This document shows, piece after piece, positions 15 to 5,336 of a stretch of DNA of 5,336 nt. Made by a program: the position numbers and the translations under genes. Position 1 is the first letter of the stretch. Each line of letters starts with the position of its first letter. Under the pieces are notes generated by a model, which saw nothing but the letters and a program-made list of their open reading frames with translations, made no database searches and was not told where the DNA came from. Source of the stretch: Nitrososphaerales archaeon (lineage in GTDB: Archaea > Thermoproteota > Nitrososphaeria > Nitrososphaerales > UBA183); assembly GCA_030042335.1 (NCBI GenBank), contig JASHZW010000037.1, positions 1 to 5,336 of the forward strand. The letters run 5' to 3'.

Positions 15-452
15 ATGACCAAGCGAAAGGTCAGGCTCGGCCACTGTTACCGATGCATCTACACGTGGCGGATGCGCCGCCAGTATCCCCGCATGTGTCC
101 GCGATGCAAGTCTCGGCTCTGGAGGACCCCGAAGGTCCGTCCCGTCGTCCTGGGGCAGGGCCTCGGGATCGAAGAGATCGTCGCGCCGCATCGGACGGCG
201 ATCTTGCGACTGGGTCGGAAGCATGGTGTTAGACAGTTCTGGGTCTTCGGCTCGGTCCGTCGCCGCGAGGCGAGCGCCACGAGCGACGTGGACCTCATGG
301 TTAGCTGGAGAAGGCCGGTTTCGTTGTTGGGCAAGGCGAGCTTGATCGTGGACCTCCGCGCCACGATGGGGCGTCGCGTGGACCTCGTGAACGTCGGGGG
401 TCTGCACTGGGCGATCGCACCCCAAGTTGAGGCCGAGAAGGTTCCGTTATGA
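15..452 (+). CDS. mntA: MntA-type minimal nucleotidyltransferase antitoxin with N-terminal zinc ribbon
   Basis: The 145-aa product has two parts. Residues 11-31 form a zinc ribbon (C11-x2-C14 and C28-P-R-C31, then K-S-R-L-W). Residues 50-145 form a minimal nucleotidyltransferase with the full GSx10DxD signature: G79-S80, ten residues, D91-V-D93, plus a third acidic residue D123 in a VDLV strand. In this family MntA uses ATP to AMPylate its partner HEPN toxin and so silence it. All three catalytic carboxylates are present, so the enzyme is probably active. The ribbon is an extra relative to the bare ~100-aa bacterial MntA; I infer a nucleic-acid or partner-binding role. The ATG at 15 sits just before the ribbon and gives a natural N-terminus, but only 14 bases lie upstream, so an earlier start outside the window cannot be excluded. 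The stop overlaps the start of hepT, so the two are co-translated. Family assignment is firm; the antitoxin role is inferred from the pair. Confidence 0.85.
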   Translation: MTKRKVRLGHCYRCIYTWRMRRQYPRMCPRCKSRLWRTPKVRPVVLGQGLGIEEIVAPHRTAILRLGRKHGVRQFWVFGSVRRREASATSDVDLMVSWRRPVSLLGKASLIVDLRATMGRRVDLVNVGGLHWAIAPQVEAEKVPL

Positions 453-832
453 AAGAGACCGAGCAAAGGGACCGGTTCCTCGTCGATGAGATGCTTCACC
501 ACCTTAGCGTGGTGGCGCTCGAGGTCCGAGGGGGCAGGGTCCGATTGGGATCCTCCCCGGAACCGCTGTACGCCCTTGAACACGCCACGGAGTTGCTGGC
601 CGAAGCAGCCGAGAAGACGAGTCGCGGGTTCAAGGCCGCCAACGAGAGCGTCCCGTGGAAGCTCCTGCGACTGTTTCGGCACGACGTCGCTCACCCCTAC
701 GACATCGGGGCAGCACGACTCGACCTCGAGCAGCTTTGGCGCTTCGCGCGAGATGACGCGCCTCGCATCACTAAGCGCTTGCGAATCGCCAGGTTTCCAA
801 AGGACCCCGGGAGCGGGGAGCGTCGCCGGTAA
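449..832 (+). CDS. hepT: HepT-like HEPN ribonuclease toxin
   Basis: This 127-aa protein has the helical HEPN pattern of the HepT/DUF86 families: a first helix rich in L, E and H (about 8-26), a central YALEHATELLAEAAEK helix (41-56), a VPW-K turn (68-71), and the diagnostic Rx4HxY motif as R77-HDVA-H82-P-Y84. In studied MntA-HepT systems this motif is the RNase active site, and its tyrosine is the residue AMPylated by MntA; Y84 is therefore the predicted modification site. The ATG at 449 overlaps the mntA stop as ATGA, and a purine stretch GAGAAGG (435-441) lies about seven bases upstream. Translation is therefore probably coupled, which would keep antitoxin and toxin in step. The antitoxin-first order is the reverse of the Shewanella pair. 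The C-terminus (about 110-127) is basic and R-rich. The pairing and both motifs make the call strong; the RNA target cannot be read from sequence. Confidence 0.87.
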   Translation: MKETEQRDRFLVDEMLHHLSVVALEVRGGRVRLGSSPEPLYALEHATELLAEAAEKTSRGFKAANESVPWKLLRLFRHDVAHPYDIGAARLDLEQLWRFARDDAPRITKRLRIARFPKDPGSGERRR

Positions 833-1049: not shown

Positions 1050-1205
1050 GGACCCGCCGACTGGAAACGCGACACCGACGACCTCCTCTCGACCCTCCGC
1101 CAGTCTAAGTCAACCCCTTCCGGGGCCCCGGTTCGCTGGGGCCCCGATCTTTACGACTGCCCGATCTGCGGGTGCGTCCACTCAATCCGGGGGCCCGGAC
1201 TATGA
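1050..1205 (+). pseudogene. Start-less tail of a small CPxC zinc-knuckle ORF
   Basis: The frame ending at TGA 1203-1205 is open back to a TAG at 972-974, which lies inside the tRNA. From about 1056 it looks coding: third positions are mostly G or C, and the peptide (ADWKRDTDDLLSTLRQ, then WGPDLYDCPICGCVH) has a normal protein composition with a C-P-x-C knuckle at codons 1158-1169 and a further C at 1173. There is no ATG, GTG or TTG anywhere in frame, so it cannot be expressed as a normal gene. Its stop overlaps the ATG of the next gene as ATGA, the usual sign of a former operon. I read it as the 3' remnant of a small zinc-finger gene whose 5' end was lost next to the tRNA. It could instead start at a rare codon or be a chance open frame. 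Confidence 0.3.
1121..1146. repeat. Perfect 9-bp inverted repeat with a TTCG tetraloop
   Basis: The arms CGGGGCCCC (1121-1129) and GGGGCCCCG (1138-1146) are perfect complements. A G-T and a G-C pair extend them to 11 bp around a TTCG loop (1132-1135). The RNA hairpin would be very stable on either strand. No T-tract follows closely, so it is not an obvious terminator. It lies inside the presumed zinc-knuckle remnant, so it could simply be coding sequence that folds. Its minus-strand reading GGGGCCCCAGCGAACC loosely recalls the GGGGTCCCC-GCGAGCC core of the intergenic repeat further right. Confidence 0.6.
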
Positions 1206-1432
1206 AGGTCGGCCGTCCCCGGCTCATCTTCGCGGAGACTCTCTTGGAGGCTGAGCGGCTACATGCTGCGGGGAGCAGCTGGGCAGACGCGGCACGCGCG
1301 CTCACAATCAGTCCTGAGATGCTTAGAGCGGCCCGAGCCAGGCTGAGGGGCGGAGAGACGTTCCCGAGCAAGAACGGGGTTTCGAGCGGGGTTCCCGCGG
1401 CCCCCGAGCAGGTTCCTGAGGTCACCCCGTGA
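1202..1432 (+). CDS. Small helix-turn-helix DNA-binding protein
   Basis: The 76-aa product opens with a basic GRPR segment (residues 4-7, AT-hook-like). A helix follows (about 10-23), then a resolvase/transposase-style helix-turn-helix, W27-A-D-A-A-R-A-L and S37-P-E-M-L-R (about 24-48). The tail is Gly/Pro-rich and probably unstructured. This is the shape of the DNA-binding half of recombinases or of small regulators, without any catalytic domain. I chose the ATG at 1202 because it directly precedes the GRPR segment and overlaps the upstream stop as ATGA; a GTG at 1172 would add ten residues that overlap the zinc-knuckle frame. The stop overlaps a GTG (1429) that opens a further 67-codon frame, but that peptide does not look like a protein. 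The DNA-binding call rests on motif shape only and the function is unknown. It could be a viral or element-borne regulator. Confidence 0.45.
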   Translation: MKVGRPRLIFAETLLEAERLHAAGSSWADAARALTISPEMLRAARARLRGGETFPSKNGVSSGVPAAPEQVPEVTP

Positions 1433-1842
1433 TACGACCCGGGGGCCTCGCGCGCGCGGGGGAGCAAACTCCCCGGCGGTTTCCAGAGAGTTTCTCAGGG
1501 GGGGTCCTCGGAGGGCCCCGCGCTCGCCTCCTCCATCTCAGGTCTAGGTGCCTTAGCAGGCCGACCACAGAAACCGGGCAGAGCGGGGTTGGGTCGGTCG
1601 AGGTTCGCGCACTCGCACTCAAGTTCTGGTGAAGGCCAGCCCGCGTAGACCCGCGGATCGTTGCCGCCCTGCCAATGGGGGAGGGGGGTTCCCGCTCCTC
1701 CCCTCAGGTTCAAACTTAGGCCGGCGAGCCGGGGAGTAAGGGGTCCCCGAGCGAGCCGAGTGCCACAAGCTATCGCGGTACAATCCTCCGGTCAGATCGC
1801 AAGGGCCAATCCGGCACAAGTGTCAGACGTCAGAGCTGTTGC
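1433..1842. other. GC-rich hairpin-rich intergenic region, no convincing gene
   Basis: About 410 bases without a gene I can defend. It contains a tight hairpin GGGGAG-CAAA-CTCCCC (1459-1474), and a 7-bp hairpin GGGGAGG (1678-1684) with CCTCCCC (1697-1703). It also has GC tracts around 1500-1525, and repeat copy 1 at 1719-1776. On the minus strand a TTG-started 72-codon frame (1713-1495) has a plausible-looking middle with W, Y and a C-E-C segment, but also long proline runs and no ribosome-binding site. I do not annotate it. A structured RNA is possible; I could not match the region to SRP RNA or RNase P RNA. Confidence 0.5.
1719..1776 (+). repeat. Intergenic repeat, copy 1
   Basis: Positions 1719-1749 match 2869-2899 (copy 2) at 30 of 31 bases. 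Positions 1733-1764 match 3316-3347 (copy 3) at 30 of 32. The core is GGAGTAAGGGGTCCCC followed by GAGCGAGCC. It lies about 70 bases past the stop of the minus-strand methyltransferase. Unlike copy 2 its right arm does not complement the left arm. GCGAGCC appears on both sides as a direct repeat, so only the inner CGGGG/CCCCG stem can form. Confidence 0.85.
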
Positions 1843-2688
1843 TTAACGGACCCTAACGGCAATCCCTACCCCTTTGCTGCAAATGGCTTCTAGGTTGGGC
1901 TTCCGAGACGTAACAAAGTCGGGAAATGCCGTGTTCCACCCTATGTCGTCGGCCACAACGAACCCGCCAATCGGTAAACGACTCCAAGCCCAATCGAATT
2001 CAAAGGCCATGTGCGCACGAGTATGCAATGAGTCGTGAAGGAAGAGTTGGGGCATAACATTCAGAGTCGGGAGGAGGTCTTGGGAGGGTCCAATCAATAG
2101 GGTCCAGTTTTTGCGGAGTGCTCCGGGCACTATCCAGCCCACTCCCAAGCTGGGCTTCACGAACACCGCGTCTCGATGGCCATGTTCACGATATGGGAGA
2201 CCCGCCGGGTCGTGATTGGGCAAGTCGACCGAGGTAAGATGCCCACTCCCGTTTTGGTGTAATGCGTCGAGGATGAAGGAGGAGGAGACCCCCTGTGCAA
2301 CGCCAGTCTCGACTACGTTTTCAGGGCGGTATCTTCGAATCAGTGCATAGAGTGCTATCTCTTTGAAACCGGGCCATCCGCCAGTGGATCTCTGAAGAGT
2401 GCCATCCTGAATGAAGCGTGTGCGCAATTCGTTCCTGACCAACCGACCAAGCTCGTGCAGACGCTCGACGCTCTCTCCCAGCTCTAAAGATGGAAGAACT
2501 TGAGAACCAACGTAGGTACTCATCACCACGAAGCGGAGTTCGCCCAGGTCAGCGCAGTGGAGGACTCGTCGCTGCTGCCTCCCGAGTACTACTTCGTAGC
2601 CTCGCCGCCTCCAGACGTTACCGATAATCCTAACTCCCAATCCCCAAAAGTTGGCAATCTTGGGCCGAGCCTTGTACAGAATCGCCAA
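1843..2688 (-). CDS. Class I SAM-dependent methyltransferase (Methyltransf_24-like, surface-glycan type)
   Basis: With the TTG at 2688 the protein has 281 residues. An N-terminal helical segment (about 15-35, ending W-R-R-R-G-Y-E-V-V) is typical of methyltransferases from polysaccharide clusters. The Rossmann core follows: the SAM loop E127-T-G-V-A-Q-G-V-S135, an acidic residue after strand 2 (D155 in SVDLP), the family signature H218-D-S-L-H222 followed by the FEFDWAW helix, and D247-D-I near the end. These features fit methyltransferases that modify sugars or small metabolites; the substrate is unknown. The start is uncertain. TTG 2715, GTG 2748 and ATG 2523 (226 aa) are alternatives. The frame runs open to 2952, but that extension passes through repeat copies 2 and 5 and is unlikely to be translated. 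A sample line in this gene (1861-1920) is 50% GC, against 62% at 3661-3720, which suggests foreign origin. No other glycan gene is nearby. Confidence 0.85.
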   Translation of the reverse strand: MAILYKARPKIANFWGLGVRIIGNVWRRRGYEVVLGRQQRRVLHCADLGELRFVVMSTYVGSQVLPSLELGESVERLHELGRLVRNELRTRFIQDGTLQRSTGGWPGFKEIALYALIRRYRPENVVETGVAQGVSSSFILDALHQNGSGHLTSVDLPNHDPAGLPYREHGHRDAVFVKPSLGVGWIVPGALRKNWTLLIGPSQDLLPTLNVMPQLFLHDSLHTRAHMAFEFDWAWSRLPIGGFVVADDIGWNTAFPDFVTSRKPNLEAICSKGVGIAVRVR

Positions 2689-2720
2689 CCTTCGAGTGCT
2701 AACCCTTGGATACAAGACCG

Positions 2721-2745
2721 GACCCGAGCGAGCCCGGGGCCCGTT
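2721..2745 (+). repeat. Intergenic repeat, degenerate partial copy 5
   Basis: The 12-mer CCCGAGCGAGCC (2723-2734) is identical to the right core of copies 1 (1745-1756) and 3 (3329-3340). GGGG and a CC-GTT stretch follow, resembling the GGGTGCCGTA that follows in copy 3. The left half (GGAGTAAGG) is missing. It lies just upstream of the methyltransferase in the same direction as the other copies. With a 12-base exact match in GC-rich DNA it is only a probable relic. Confidence 0.4.
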
Positions 2746-2868
2746 CACGAGTTCGGCAGAGGGGATCGGAGTCTGATGCAAGGTCCCGGGAAGTCCTTCC
2801 AGGCGCTCAGGTCTACTCCAAGTAAACCATTTCCGGCGGCCGATGGACTGACCGCTCCACTCCCATTG

Positions 2869-2925
2869 GGCCGGCGAGTCGGGGAGTAAGGGGTCCCCGG
2901 CTCGCCGGGCGCTCCTAGGAATAGC
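2869..2925 (+). repeat. Intergenic repeat, copy 2, with a long hairpin
   Basis: It is identical to copy 1 at 30 of 31 bases on the left. It also folds on itself: CCGGCGAG (2871-2878) pairs with CTCGCCGG (2901-2908), T2879 faces G2900, and CGGGG (2880-2884) pairs with CCCCG (2895-2899). That is 14 stacked positions including one G-T wobble, around a 10-base loop AGTAAGGGGT. After the stem comes TAGGAATAG, also seen as TAGGGATAG in copy 3 and GGGAATAG in copy 4. It sits between the divergently oriented methyltransferase and zinc-ribbon genes. Confidence 0.88.
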
Positions 2926-2978
2926 GCGCCACTGTCTTCTACCAAAGTGCATCTCCGCAAACCGGGATCGGGGTATTC

Positions 2979-3281
2979 ATGCAGGGCCGACGGGTTGCCG
3001 GAATCGTTCTCGTGATCCTCGGAATCGTGTTCGTCCTCCTGACGGTCACGACGGTTTACGCGCTCCCGTTGGGCCTGATCGTCTTGGTCCTGGGAATCCT
3101 CCTAATCGTCCGGATTCGCTCCGGAGGCGCGTTGTTCCCTGCCATACGAGAACAGCTGGACTACCGCGACTCGATGCGGGAGGTGGAATCTCGACCGGGT
3201 CCGACCTGCTGGCGGTGCAAACGACAGAACCGGCCGTTCGCGACTGTCTGCGAGGCCTGCGGCGCCGAGCTCACACAGTGA
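2979..3281 (+). CDS. Two-helix membrane protein with C-terminal zinc ribbon
   Basis: This is a 100-aa protein. Residues 6-26 (V, I, L, F, with one G) and 29-46 (L-P-L-G-L-I-V-L-V-L-G-I-L-L-I-V) form two membrane helices separated by a short Y-A-L-P turn. A charged linker follows (57-72). The C-terminus is a zinc ribbon C77-W-R-C80 and C91-E-A-C94-G. Short helices plus a zinc ribbon are common in archaeal proteins of unknown function; a membrane-anchored adaptor or sensor is conceivable, but nothing shows it. The ATG at 2979 lies four residues before the first helix, which suits a membrane protein. There is only a weak G-rich stretch (about 2965-2973) upstream and no clear TATA box. It stands alone between repeat copies 2 and 3, with no partner in the same direction close by. 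Topology is confident; function is unknown. Confidence 0.75.
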   Translation: MQGRRVAGIVLVILGIVFVLLTVTTVYALPLGLIVLVLGILLIVRIRSGGALFPAIREQLDYRDSMREVESRPGPTCWRCKRQNRPFATVCEACGAELTQ

Positions 3282-3315
3282 CGGTTCCCCTCCCCACGTT
3301 GTGAATCCCCGCAAT

Positions 3316-3357
3316 GGAGTAAGGGATCCCCGAGCGAGCCGGGTGCCGTAGGGATAG
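3316..3357 (+). repeat. Intergenic repeat, copy 3
   Basis: Positions 3316-3347 match copy 1 (1733-1764) at 30 of 32 bases: GGAGTAAGGGATCCCC, then GAGCGAGCCGGGTGCC. The far-left GGCCGGCGAG arm of copies 1 and 2 is absent here, so the conserved unit is the core plus right side, ending in TAGGGATAG. It separates the zinc-ribbon membrane gene from the P-loop kinase gene and ends about 33 bases before the kinase TATA box. Confidence 0.85.
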
Positions 3358-3389
3358 GGACCACAGAGAGCGAGGGGCGGGAGAGTCGG

Positions 3390-3396
3390 TATAAAA
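3390..3396 (+). promoter_or_regulatory. Archaeal TATA box for a leaderless transcript
   Basis: TATAAAA stands out in otherwise GC-rich DNA. Its centre is about 26 bases before the ATG at 3419, the usual archaeal distance from TATA box to transcription start. The transcript would therefore begin at or next to the start codon. The GGAGGGAG that touches this ATG is too close to act as a normal Shine-Dalgarno site. This supports both the archaeal assignment and the chosen start of the kinase gene. Confidence 0.65.
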
Positions 3397-3418
3397 CGTC
3401 GATTTGTGCCGGAGGGAG

Positions 3419-3977
3419 ATGGCAACGGAGTACCGCGTTACCTCCCCCGTTACCCTCATTCTGATCACGGGGAACCCCGGAGCCGGGAAGACAGCTGTTT
3501 CGAAACTCCTTTTTGCGGCCTGCCCGAGGAATGGAGGCTCGTCAGTCTCGACGACTTCTTGTTTCTGAATGTAGAAGGCGCCGGATTCAGTTGGACAATC
3601 TACGAGGCCAGCGCCCCCGACCGTGCATCCGCCCTCAAGTTCTACGCCAGCAATCGCGCGAAGGTGCTCGCGGAAGGAATCGTGCAGTCCGACTACGAGG
3701 TTCGGACCTACTGCGCTGCGATGGGCCTTACCCCCGAGTCCGTGGAGTTTCGGTTTATCGACCTTAGATGCGAGAGGGCCGAGGCCGTCCAACGGATGAC
3801 TGGCCGCCCCCTTCGTCAGGATGGGCTCTTCAAGCCCGGGGACCACTACGTCGGCCTGACCGAGAAATTGGGGCAAGTGGGGCAACCCAGGTCACCACCG
3901 ACGGCAAAACACCTGAAGCTGTGGCCCTGGAGGTCCTTGCTATCGTCAACGGCCCGAAGAGTCGCCCCTCGACCTAG
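3419..3977 (+). pseudogene. P-loop kinase-like gene interrupted by two frameshifts
   Basis: The ATG at 3419 opens a reading frame with a β-strand and Walker A motif LILITGNPGAGKT (residues 13-25). That frame stops early after losing similarity near 3524. The protein continues in the -1 frame from about 3523 (P-E-E-W-R-L-V-S-L-D-D-F) through Y-E-A-S, F-I-D-L-R-C-E-R and a R-M-T-G-R-P-L-R segment. This resembles the lid of small-molecule or nucleotide kinases. Near 3880 it must shift again to end with TTDGKTPEAVALEVLAIV and TAG at 3975-3977. The joined product is about 186 aa, a normal length for AAA_33/APS-kinase-like proteins. Both breaks fit one missing base, at CCC (3523-3525) or the T run (3510-3514), and at GGGG (3879-3882). 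They are either real lesions or homopolymer sequencing errors. The substrate cannot be told. Confidence 0.8.
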
Positions 3978-4153
3978 CCGGACAAATGGGCCCGTTCTCA
4001 CCGCTGAGGCCTCTCTTGGTGAACCGGACCCTTGGTGACGATGAGAGACTCCGCACGGCCGACCGCCCTTGGGTCCCCAGCGAGCAAGCTGCTGCCCGGG
4101 AATAGTACGAGTTGGTAGGGGTCGCTCGAAGCGGCGGGGCGACGGACCTCGAG
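3978..4153. other. Intergenic region between convergent genes
   Basis: It holds the degenerate repeat copy 4 (4071-4107). I see no T-rich terminator, tRNA or credible small gene. The two flanking genes point towards it, so both transcripts must end here or nearby. Confidence 0.5.
4071..4107 (+). repeat. Intergenic repeat, degenerate copy 4
   Basis: GGGTCCCC-AGCGAGC (4071-4085) corresponds to GGGTCCCCGAGCGAGC of copy 1 with one base missing. GGGAATAG (4098-4105) corresponds to AGGAATAG of copy 2 (2917-2924). The spacing between the two blocks is nearly that of copy 2. The left GGAGTAA block is not recognisable. I treat it as an old, decayed member of the same family. Confidence 0.45.
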
Positions 4154-4957: not shown

Positions 4958-4998
4958 TCACGACATCTTGCCGACTGAATTGTCAGGACATCTTGCCG
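4958..4998 (+). repeat. Direct repeat pair at the insertion-sequence end
   Basis: Two 16-mers with 25-base periodicity differ at a single position (TCACGACATC... versus TCAGGACATC...). Both end in CTTGCCG. They are probably the transposase-binding sites of the left terminal inverted repeat. Confidence 0.8.
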
Positions 4999-5011: not shown

Positions 5012-5336
5012 GTGGCCTTGGTCAGAAAGGATGTCCGACTTCGCCTCCACGCCTTCAAGCAGCACCTCGAACGTGGGGTCCGAGCAGCCGAAATCTGCAG
5101 ACTTCACGGGATCTCCGAGAGGACCCTGAGATACTGGTGCCAGCACTATCGCGAGAACGGCGTCCCTGGGTCGAGGAACGAGTCCCGTCGACCTCGACGT
5201 AACCCCAACCGCATCCACGGGAACCTCGTCAACCGGATCCTCCAGCTGCGCAGAAGGAATCCCGCTTGGGGCGCACTGCGGATCCACGCAGTCCTCGCTC
5301 GCCGAGGGGTGAAGGTCGCGTGGATTACCGTCCATC
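5012..5336 (+). CDS. IS481-family transposase, N-terminal part
   Basis: 108 codons are visible before the window ends. The first helix-turn-helix is R21-G-V-R-A-A-E-I-C-R-L-H-G-I-S-E-R-T-L-R-Y-W (about 21-42). A basic linker R-N-E-S-R-R-P-R-R-N follows. A second DNA-binding domain (about 67-108) carries the family signature L-R-R-R-N-P-A-W-G-A-L-R-I-H, and then R-R-G-V-K-V-A-W-I-T-V. These match the N-terminal half of IS481/IS3-like DDE transposases; the catalytic DDE core would lie to the right, so intactness is unknown. The GTG at 5012 is the first start in frame after TGA 4976-4978, and a GGGAAGG stretch (5004-5010) lies immediately upstream. The gene begins 14 bases after the second terminal repeat, which is typical of compact insertion sequences. 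Confidence 0.9.
   Translation, partial: MALVRKDVRLRLHAFKQHLERGVRAAEICRLHGISERTLRYWCQHYRENGVPGSRNESRRPRRNPNRIHGNLVNRILQLRRRNPAWGALRIHAVLARRGVKVAWITVH

What the first reader, a model, noticed from the sequence alone, without database searches (positions are those of the whole stretch)
1719..4107. Same-orientation intergenic repeat family separating single genes
Three clear copies (1719, 2869, 3316; 30/31 and 30/32 matches in pairwise cores) and two degenerate ones (2721, 4071) all point the same way, although the flanking genes point both ways. Exactly one gene lies between consecutive main copies: the methyltransferase, the zinc-ribbon membrane gene, then the kinase. This is reminiscent of gene cassettes bounded by recombination sites. 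It could also be a non-autonomous mobile repeat or a REP-like element. I do not recognise it as a described family.
Basis: partly seen in the sequence, partly recalled or inferred. Interest (0 to 1): 0.7.

Follow-up and report, generated by a model that had tools for sequence, protein, structure and literature searches.

The report
Insertion scars behind a new RNA
In a little-known group of archaea, the repeat seen here is the tail end of a previously unlisted RNA-like element, and extra copies of that tail seem to mark places where small genes were slotted in behind it, one after another.

Summary
The repeat is real. It is the 3'-terminal hairpin of a conserved noncoding element of about 231 nt (window 1536-1766 +), probably a structured RNA, with no Rfam match. 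Of 106 genomes of one Thermoplasmata order, 4 hold it in full and 1 truncated. In the window and four of these five genomes, extra 3'-end copies follow on the same strand 0.3-1.1 kb away, with one or two small genes between. Close copies occur nowhere else. Four of seven downstream copies keep only the right (3') half. That is the scar left when an integrase inserts DNA into the 3' end of an RNA gene and displaces its old end. A relative shows the textbook case at RNase P RNA: an integrase and a perfect 28-nt copy of the gene's end 4.2 kb on. The third window interval begins with a leader found at only two places in 106 genomes, both divergent from an integrase gene. Best reading: successive insertions of integrase-less, cassette-sized units at a new RNA gene, integron-like in layout but not an integron. 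The enzyme, transcription of the element and actual movement are inferred, not shown.

The parts
1536..1766 (+). Conserved, probably structured noncoding element (231 nt); proposed target RNA gene
   Evidence: BLAST identity over 219-230 nt: 90% to G001, 86% to G076, 78% to G043, 69% to G070; covariance model R1; no Rfam match; mismatches spread evenly over frame positions, indels of 1-4 nt, so not coding
1719..1766 (+). Repeat copy 1 = 3'-terminal hairpin of the element
   Evidence: left half 22/22, right half 23/24 of consensus; fold z -3.8 as RNA, -3.3 as DNA
2866..2922 (+). Repeat copy 2; full hairpin, right arm an almost perfect complement of the left arm
   Evidence: left 20/22, right 13/24 ungapped, 16/24 with a one-base shift; fold z -4.5 RNA, -5.5 DNA
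3316..3355 (+). Repeat copy 3; right half plus the last 7 bases (GGAGTAA) of the left half; hairpin lost; proposed displaced 3' end
   Evidence: left 11/22, right 23/24; RNA fold z +1.4
4069..4104 (+). Possible degenerate copy 4; not secure
   Evidence: right 16/24 with shift, 10/24 as anchored; similar ending to copy 2
2720..2744 (+). Possible degenerate copy; chance cannot be excluded
   Evidence: right 17/24
1843..2952 (-). Methyltransferase (Methyltransf_24), interval 1; true start probably near 2690 (inference)
   Evidence: Pfam E 1e-16; GC 0.54-0.57 against a window mean of 0.62; 297 proteins with E <= 1e-10, the window's own included
2979..3281 (+). Small membrane protein with C-terminal zinc ribbon, interval 2
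   Evidence: Zn_Ribbon_1 E 0.0011, below the curated cut-off
3366..3414 (+). Promoter-like leader (TATAAAA) shared with two integrase-bearing loci
   Evidence: 88% over 49 nt to G001:C154 and 88% over 43 nt to G076:C84; 24-nt core exact at only 2 places in 106 genomes, none more with up to 3 mismatches
3419..3977 (+). Kinase-like gene, interval 3; reading frame broken
   Evidence: P-loop GNPGAGKT read by eye, remainder in other frames; no Pfam match for the one frame tested
1202..1432 (+). Small ORF resembling the C-terminal helix-turn-helix of serine recombinases, upstream of the element
   Evidence: HTH_7 E 0.029, below the cut-off

Best explanation
The 231-nt element is a lineage-restricted noncoding RNA gene whose 3'-terminal hairpin serves as a chromosomal attachment site. 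Small mobile units recombined, one after another, into the 3' half of this hairpin (in or near GGGGTCCCCGAGCGAGCCGGGTGC). Each insertion rebuilds the 3' end of the RNA gene and pushes the older 3' end downstream, so same-strand 3'-end copies come to alternate with cargo genes. The acting enzyme is most likely a tyrosine integrase supplied by related elements elsewhere in the genome, because the inserts themselves carry only cargo. Shown: the conserved element, the locus-restricted copies, the half-site asymmetry, foreign composition of several intervals, the leader shared with integrase loci, and a textbook insertion at RNase P RNA in a relative. Inferred: that the element is transcribed, that it is the target, which enzyme acts, and that the units are or were mobile.
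For: Full element in the window and 4 of 106 order genomes, truncated in a fifth. Downstream same-strand copies in four of the five: with a matrix that leaves out each genome's own copies they score 38.1 (G001), 22.3 (G071), 12.4 (G076) and 10.0 (G043), against at most 5.1-7.0 in 88 kb of other DNA from this order. First copies match both hairpin halves in 6 of 6 loci (left 16-22/22, right 16-24/24), while 4 of 7 downstream copies (window 3316, G001, G076, G043) match essentially the right half only (left 7-11/22, right 19-24/24). GC3 of interval genes in G071 and G076 is 0.67-0.76, against 0.85-0.97 in five other genes that I picked on those contigs. Leader at window 3366-3414 at only 2 places in 106 genomes, both divergent from a tyrosine integrase. 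G001:C154 reads as a ~1.9-kb element with integrase, one acetyltransferase gene and a serine-recombinase remnant beside tRNA-Thr, with a 17/19 copy of the tRNA 5' end at its far side (E 0.019 within the contig). G106 has an integrase 34.5% identical to that of G076 overlapping the 3' end of RNase P RNA, and a perfect 28-nt copy of that end 4.2 kb downstream. The rule 'regenerated target plus displaced fragment' stands in the abstract of PMC4383910 (seen in the listing).
Against: No PF00589 integrase on any of the five contigs that carry the element, one of them 177 kb long, and none among the window proteins tested. Units of 0.3-1.1 kb are far smaller than usual islands. Of seven downstream copies, two (window 2866, G071) keep the left arm and one (4071) is insecure. 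Low GC is clear only for the methyltransferase interval, G071 and (by GC3) G076; the zinc-ribbon and kinase intervals of the window and the G043 interval show no clear dip. No pair of strains with and without one insert was found. G070, the only relative without a clear second copy, has a diverged element whose own tail the matrix does not recognise (-2.0), and has a borderline hit (6.5) just behind its first gene. Hairpin folding is weak in some first copies (RNA z -1.4 in G001, +0.8 in G043). Covariation support for the RNA is modest: 4 pairs with changes on both sides, reached by 59 of 500 shuffles, and an unfavourable covariation term of +3.84. RNase P is 95% identical between G070 and G001 but their elements only 65%, so the element may itself move or MAG bins may be mixed.
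Confidence: 0.6

Rival explanations
1. An integron-like platform: the 231-nt element is not a cellular RNA gene but the fixed landing site (attI-like) of a mobile cassette system, and the hairpin copies are folded single-strand recombination sites (attC-like) that belong to the cassettes.
For: Intervals with one or two genes, same-strand sites, strong hairpins in window copies 1 and 2; patchy distribution and discordance of the element with RNase P; different genes beside the element in every genome.
Against: No attC core motifs in copies 1 and 2 (read); the three right-half-only copies that were folded (window 3316, G001, G076) do not form the hairpin (RNA z +0.7 to +1.4); no tyrosine integrase on the element's contigs.
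Confidence: 0.2
2. Serine-recombinase version of the same story: the resolvase-type recombinase encoded just downstream of RNase P in G076 acts at the tails.
For: Serine recombinase on G076:C84, 260 nt after RNase P, about where the element lies in G070; weak resolvase-like helix-turn-helix ORF upstream of the element in the window.
Against: Adjacency of G076 contigs C84 and C55 is not shown; the window ORF lacks a catalytic domain; G070 and G071 have no serine recombinase at E <= 0.001.
Confidence: 0.1
3. No mobility: the hairpin is an ordinary regulatory or RNA-processing element duplicated locally behind the RNA gene.
For: Copies are local and on one strand; copy 2 keeps a near-perfect hairpin.
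Against: Genes between copies lie on both strands; the right-half-only copies that were folded do not form the hairpin; foreign composition of several intervals; leader shared with integrase loci.
Confidence: 0.12
4. Dispersed mobile repeat (REP-like, or a retro-copied RNA tail).
For: Copies are 5'-truncated at different points and share a 3' end.
Against: No dispersed copies at 0-2 mismatches in the eight genomes searched; no Y1 transposase in 5 of 5 genomes.
Confidence: 0.04

Closest known systems
Genomic islands integrated in tRNA/tmRNA genes by tyrosine integrases (Islander type)
   Same: Intact RNA gene followed on the same strand by a displaced fragment of its 3' end, with foreign genes between
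   Different: The target is an unlisted RNA-like element, the inserts are 0.3-1.1 kb with no integrase gene, and they are stacked
Integrons and integrase-less attC clusters, including archaeal ones (PMC9668308, passages seen)
   Same: Units of one or two genes separated by same-orientation sites, integrase absent from the array
   Different: No attC motifs in copies 1 and 2, half sites instead of full sites, a 231-nt conserved element at the head; the string 'thermoplasma' does not occur in the main text of that paper
Very small archaeal elements with one integrase and one cargo gene (G001:C154, this work)
   Same: Same leader sequence in front of the cargo gene
   Different: The window unit lacks the integrase and sits at a different RNA-like target
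REP/BIME repeats with RAYT transposases (recalled)
   Same: Short intergenic hairpin repeats
   Different: Confined to one locus; no Y1 transposase found

Membership tests
Integrative island at an RNA gene | Intact target gene plus displaced fragment of its end in direct orientation | tested here: met
   First copies match both halves in 6 of 6 loci; 4 of 7 downstream copies match essentially the right half only. In G071 the upstream part of the element is truncated
Integrative island at an RNA gene | Integrase gene within the island | tested here: not met
   No PF00589 match on the five element-bearing contigs, none among window proteins tested; contigs are incomplete
Integrative island at an RNA gene | Foreign composition of the inserted DNA | tested here: inconclusive
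   Clear for the window methyltransferase interval, G071 and (GC3) G076; not clear for the other window intervals and G043
Integrative island at an RNA gene | Target is a functional RNA gene | tested here: inconclusive
   Conserved, noncoding, foldable, modest covariation; no Rfam match; expression not testable
Integron / attC cluster | attC sites with RYYYAAC / GTTRRRY core motifs (recalled) | tested here: not met
   No GTT or AAC in copies 1 and 2 (read)
Integron / attC cluster | IntI integrase next to the array | tested here: not met
   contigs incomplete
REP / RAYT | Many copies dispersed through the genome | tested here: not met
   draft genomes
REP / RAYT | Y1 (RAYT) transposase in the genome | tested here: not met
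   0 of 5 genomes
Known RNA family (Rfam 15), archaeal SRP and RNase P RNA included | Covariance-model match | tested here: not met
   SRP RNA found at a separate place in 4 of 5 genomes, RNase P RNA in 5 of 5

The most novel reading that the evidence does not exclude
A cassette-capture platform unlike integrons: a new noncoding RNA gene of Thermoplasmata whose 3' hairpin is a standing attachment site at which integrase-less units of one or two genes are stacked, moved in trans by a family of very small integrase-plus-one-cargo elements that use structured RNA genes (tRNA-Thr, C/D-box sRNA, RNase P RNA and the new RNA) as their sites and share a common cargo leader.
Probability: 0.35. Interest if true: 0.85.

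Novelty: new variant of a known kind. Interest (0 to 1): 0.62.

Why it matters
If right, it adds an unlisted structured RNA to a poorly known archaeal group, adds RNase P RNA and the new RNA to the integration targets seen there, and gives archaea a cassette-stacking system built on a principle other than attC sites. It also suggests a way to find tiny integrase-less inserts that searches for integrase genes would miss: look for half copies of RNA-gene ends.

Tried and rejected
Known RNA families: Rfam at permissive thresholds gave only chance-level hits for the element. SRP RNA and RNase P RNA are found at separate places, so the element is neither. Virus, plasmid or phage origin: no match to the element in plasmids or phages; in viral contigs the core pattern gave 0, an inner pattern 3 that the model rejects, the leader 0, and the integrase no relative. 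Weak tail or element hits in G012, G061, G037, G027, G019, at G001:C77 and at a second G043 place were judged chance; of these I looked at the sequence of G012 (inside a protease-like gene) and G037 only. Reciprocal half-site exchange between window copies 2 and 3 was considered and dropped, because the right arm of copy 2 is the complement of its own left arm. A first left-half count was out of register and was redone. A first alignment had two elements in the wrong orientation and was redone. The first weight-matrix scan had been trained on some of the copies it scored and was redone leaving each genome's copies out. A serine recombinase as the main enzyme is kept as a rival only.
Full report
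Observation. The window holds three clear same-strand copies of the reported repeat (16-nt core at 1733, 2883, 3316; 0.13 expected, 0 of 200 shuffles with 3). The two degenerate copies (2721, 4071) match 17/24 and 16/24 of the right half, which chance alone can give in a window of this size.

The repeat is the end of something larger. No genome is held for the window. One scan of genome contigs with a 22-nt pattern gave a single locus, L001, a Thermoplasmata MAG contig. It aligns with the window over about 230 nt (90%), and the repeat is the last 50 nt. DNA and covariance searches found the full element in G001, G076, G043 and G070 and a truncated one in G071: 5 of 106 genomes of the order and the same 5 of 400 drawn from the class; both runs used strict filters that can lose weak matches. 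One search listed 7 of 106, of which G012 and G061 are taken as chance. The four full elements are single in their genomes at E <= 0.001. The element is noncoding: mismatches fall evenly on frame positions and indels are 1-4 nt. Of the cells of a 63-pair consensus structure 88.9% pair, against 35-50% when partners are slid, but only 4 pairs change on both sides, which 59 of 500 shuffles reach, and the covariation term is unfavourable (+3.84). The structure is therefore likely, not proven. Rfam has no match.

Downstream copies. A weight matrix trained without the genome in question finds a second tail downstream on the same strand in G001 (38.1), G071 (22.3), G076 (12.4) and G043 (10.0); the highest score in 88 kb of other DNA from this order is 5.1-7.0. 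In G070 the best hit is 6.5, just behind the first gene, against 5.0 in the control, while G070's own tail scores only -2.0; so G070 is undecided, and its own tail has no convincing second match on its contig (best E 0.008, upstream). In the window the matrix gives 48.9, 43.4 and, for copy 2 with its changed right arm, 4.1. In eight genomes a 20-nt right-half pattern gave 5 hits with 0-2 mismatches, all at RNA loci (G001, G043, G071), and 14 with 3 mismatches, one of them the G076 RNA locus; the reversed control gave 6. Gaps between neighbouring copies are about 1.1 and 0.4 kb in the window and 0.26-0.84 kb in the relatives.

Half sites. I split the tail into a left (22 nt) and a right (24 nt) half and scored both against 176,132 control positions. 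First copies: left 16-22, right 16-24 in 6 of 6 loci (G070 lowest, 16 and 16). Downstream copies: window 3316 L11 R23 (its last seven left bases kept), G001 L9 R24, G076 L10 R19, G043 L7 R20, that is, essentially the right half only; G071 L17 R18 and window 2866 L20 R13 keep the left half; window 4071 fails when anchored (L5 R10). Three right-half-only copies were folded and do not form the hairpin (RNA z +1.4, +1.3, +0.7). Among first copies folding is uneven: z -3.8 (window), -2.1 (G071), -1.4 (G001), +0.8 (G043). The half-site asymmetry is what insertion into the 3' end of a gene leaves behind.

Foreign DNA. GC falls to 0.54-0.57 in the methyltransferase interval of the window and to 0.56-0.60 in the G071 interval, against means of 0.62 and 0.70 for those sequences. 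GC3 of interval genes is 0.67-0.72 in G071 and 0.72-0.76 in G076 (the second G076 gene lies behind its second copy), against 0.85-0.97 in five other genes that I picked on those contigs; one search also lists a G076 ORF outside the intervals with 0.73. The other window intervals and G043 show no clear dip. Contents differ in every genome: methyltransferase, zinc-ribbon membrane protein, kinase-like gene, a DUF5678-like plus aspartyl-protease pair (G071), small membrane proteins, a 138-aa protein without a Pfam match.

Recombinases. All five genomes have tyrosine integrases, none on the contigs with the element. A 43-49-nt leader just behind window copy 3 is shared with G001:C154 and G076:C84. 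Its 24-nt core is exact at those two places, and with up to 3 mismatches there is no further place in 106 genomes. At both it is divergent from an integrase gene. G001:C154 reads as a ~1.9-kb element: a 17/19 copy of the tRNA-Thr 5' end, serine-recombinase remnant, acetyltransferase, leader, integrase, tRNA-Thr. The G076 integrase ends beside a C/D-box sRNA near RNase P, and one G043 integrase lies beside a tRNA-Thr. In G106 an integrase of this family (34.5% to that of G076) overlaps the 3' end of RNase P RNA, with a perfect 28-nt copy of that end 4,160 nt further on. Among the other 25 genomes with RNase P examined, none shows a comparable copy within the downstream flanks held, 0.4-8.8 kb (best 16/18, E 0.006, in G070). 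The G001 integrase has 492 relatives with E <= 1e-10 among 7,994 scored candidates; 5 of the 120 listed bear a Thermoplasmata name.

Interpretation. Integrases of this family do insert at structured RNA genes in this order, and the tails have the same anatomy as the G106 scar. The window units lack integrases, so I propose movement in trans. Not shown: transcription of the element, the enzyme, an empty site, a circular unit.

Against. In an RNase P tree of 26 genomes the element-bearing genomes group with G045 and G106, in which the model found no element; support inside that group is low. G070 and G001 share 95% of RNase P but 65% of the element. Mis-binning of the short G001 contig, fast change in G070, or movement of the element itself would each explain this; the last would favour the rival in which the element is part of the mobile system.

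Literature. Seen: the listing with the beginning of the abstract of PMC4383910, and passages of PMC9668308 and PMC8371274. Searches on RNase P RNA or small RNA genes as island sites found 0 papers holding all the terms; related searches were 60, 61, 95, 99 and 100. The library holds open-licence papers only, so this is weak evidence of novelty.

One search replaced the matrix scores, changed the reading of G070 from 'no extra copy' to undecided, and confirmed the overlap in G106.

Noticed in passing
window 15-832 (+): Nucleotidyltransferase followed by a HepT-like gene: looks like an MNT/HepT toxin-antitoxin pair (HepT just below the Pfam cut-off).
   Followed up: no
window 1108-1131; L021 14808-14875; L090 2489-2552; L001 1595-1657; L019 12779-12742: A hairpin-rich motif (ACCGAA...CCAACYCC...CCCCGGGCAACCGGG) recurs upstream of the element or after RNase P in several genomes; could be a second conserved element of the locus.
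   Followed up: partly
L132 (G106:C6), RNase P 3' end and 4.2 kb downstream of it: Integrative element at the 3' end of RNase P RNA with a perfect 28-nt direct repeat and a convergent tyrosine integrase.
   Followed up: yes
L094 8087-10100 (G001:C154): Very small element (about 1.9 kb) beside tRNA-Thr: one acetyltransferase gene, leader, integrase and a serine-recombinase remnant, with the tRNA 5' end repeated (17/19).
   Followed up: yes
L127 7365-7997 (G015:C47) and L090 2629-3108 (G076:C84): Serine recombinase genes about 1 kb and 0.26 kb downstream of RNase P RNA in two genomes.
   Followed up: partly
L129 819-935 / L064 389-505 (G048), next to the C/D-box sRNA: Possible remnant of the C-terminus of a G076-like integrase (51% over 41 aa) beside the same sRNA site.
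   Followed up: no
window 4958-4998 and 5012-5335 (+): Start of an IS-like helix-turn-helix transposase at the contig end, preceded by a 16-nt direct repeat (15/16).
   Followed up: no
L009 2978-3034 (+); L090 1178-1232 (-): C/D-box sRNA-like gene near RNase P, conserved in several relatives.
   Followed up: partly
G070 contig C79, oriented position 10230: Borderline tail-like match (6.5) directly behind the first gene after the G070 element; could be a worn copy or chance.
   Followed up: partly
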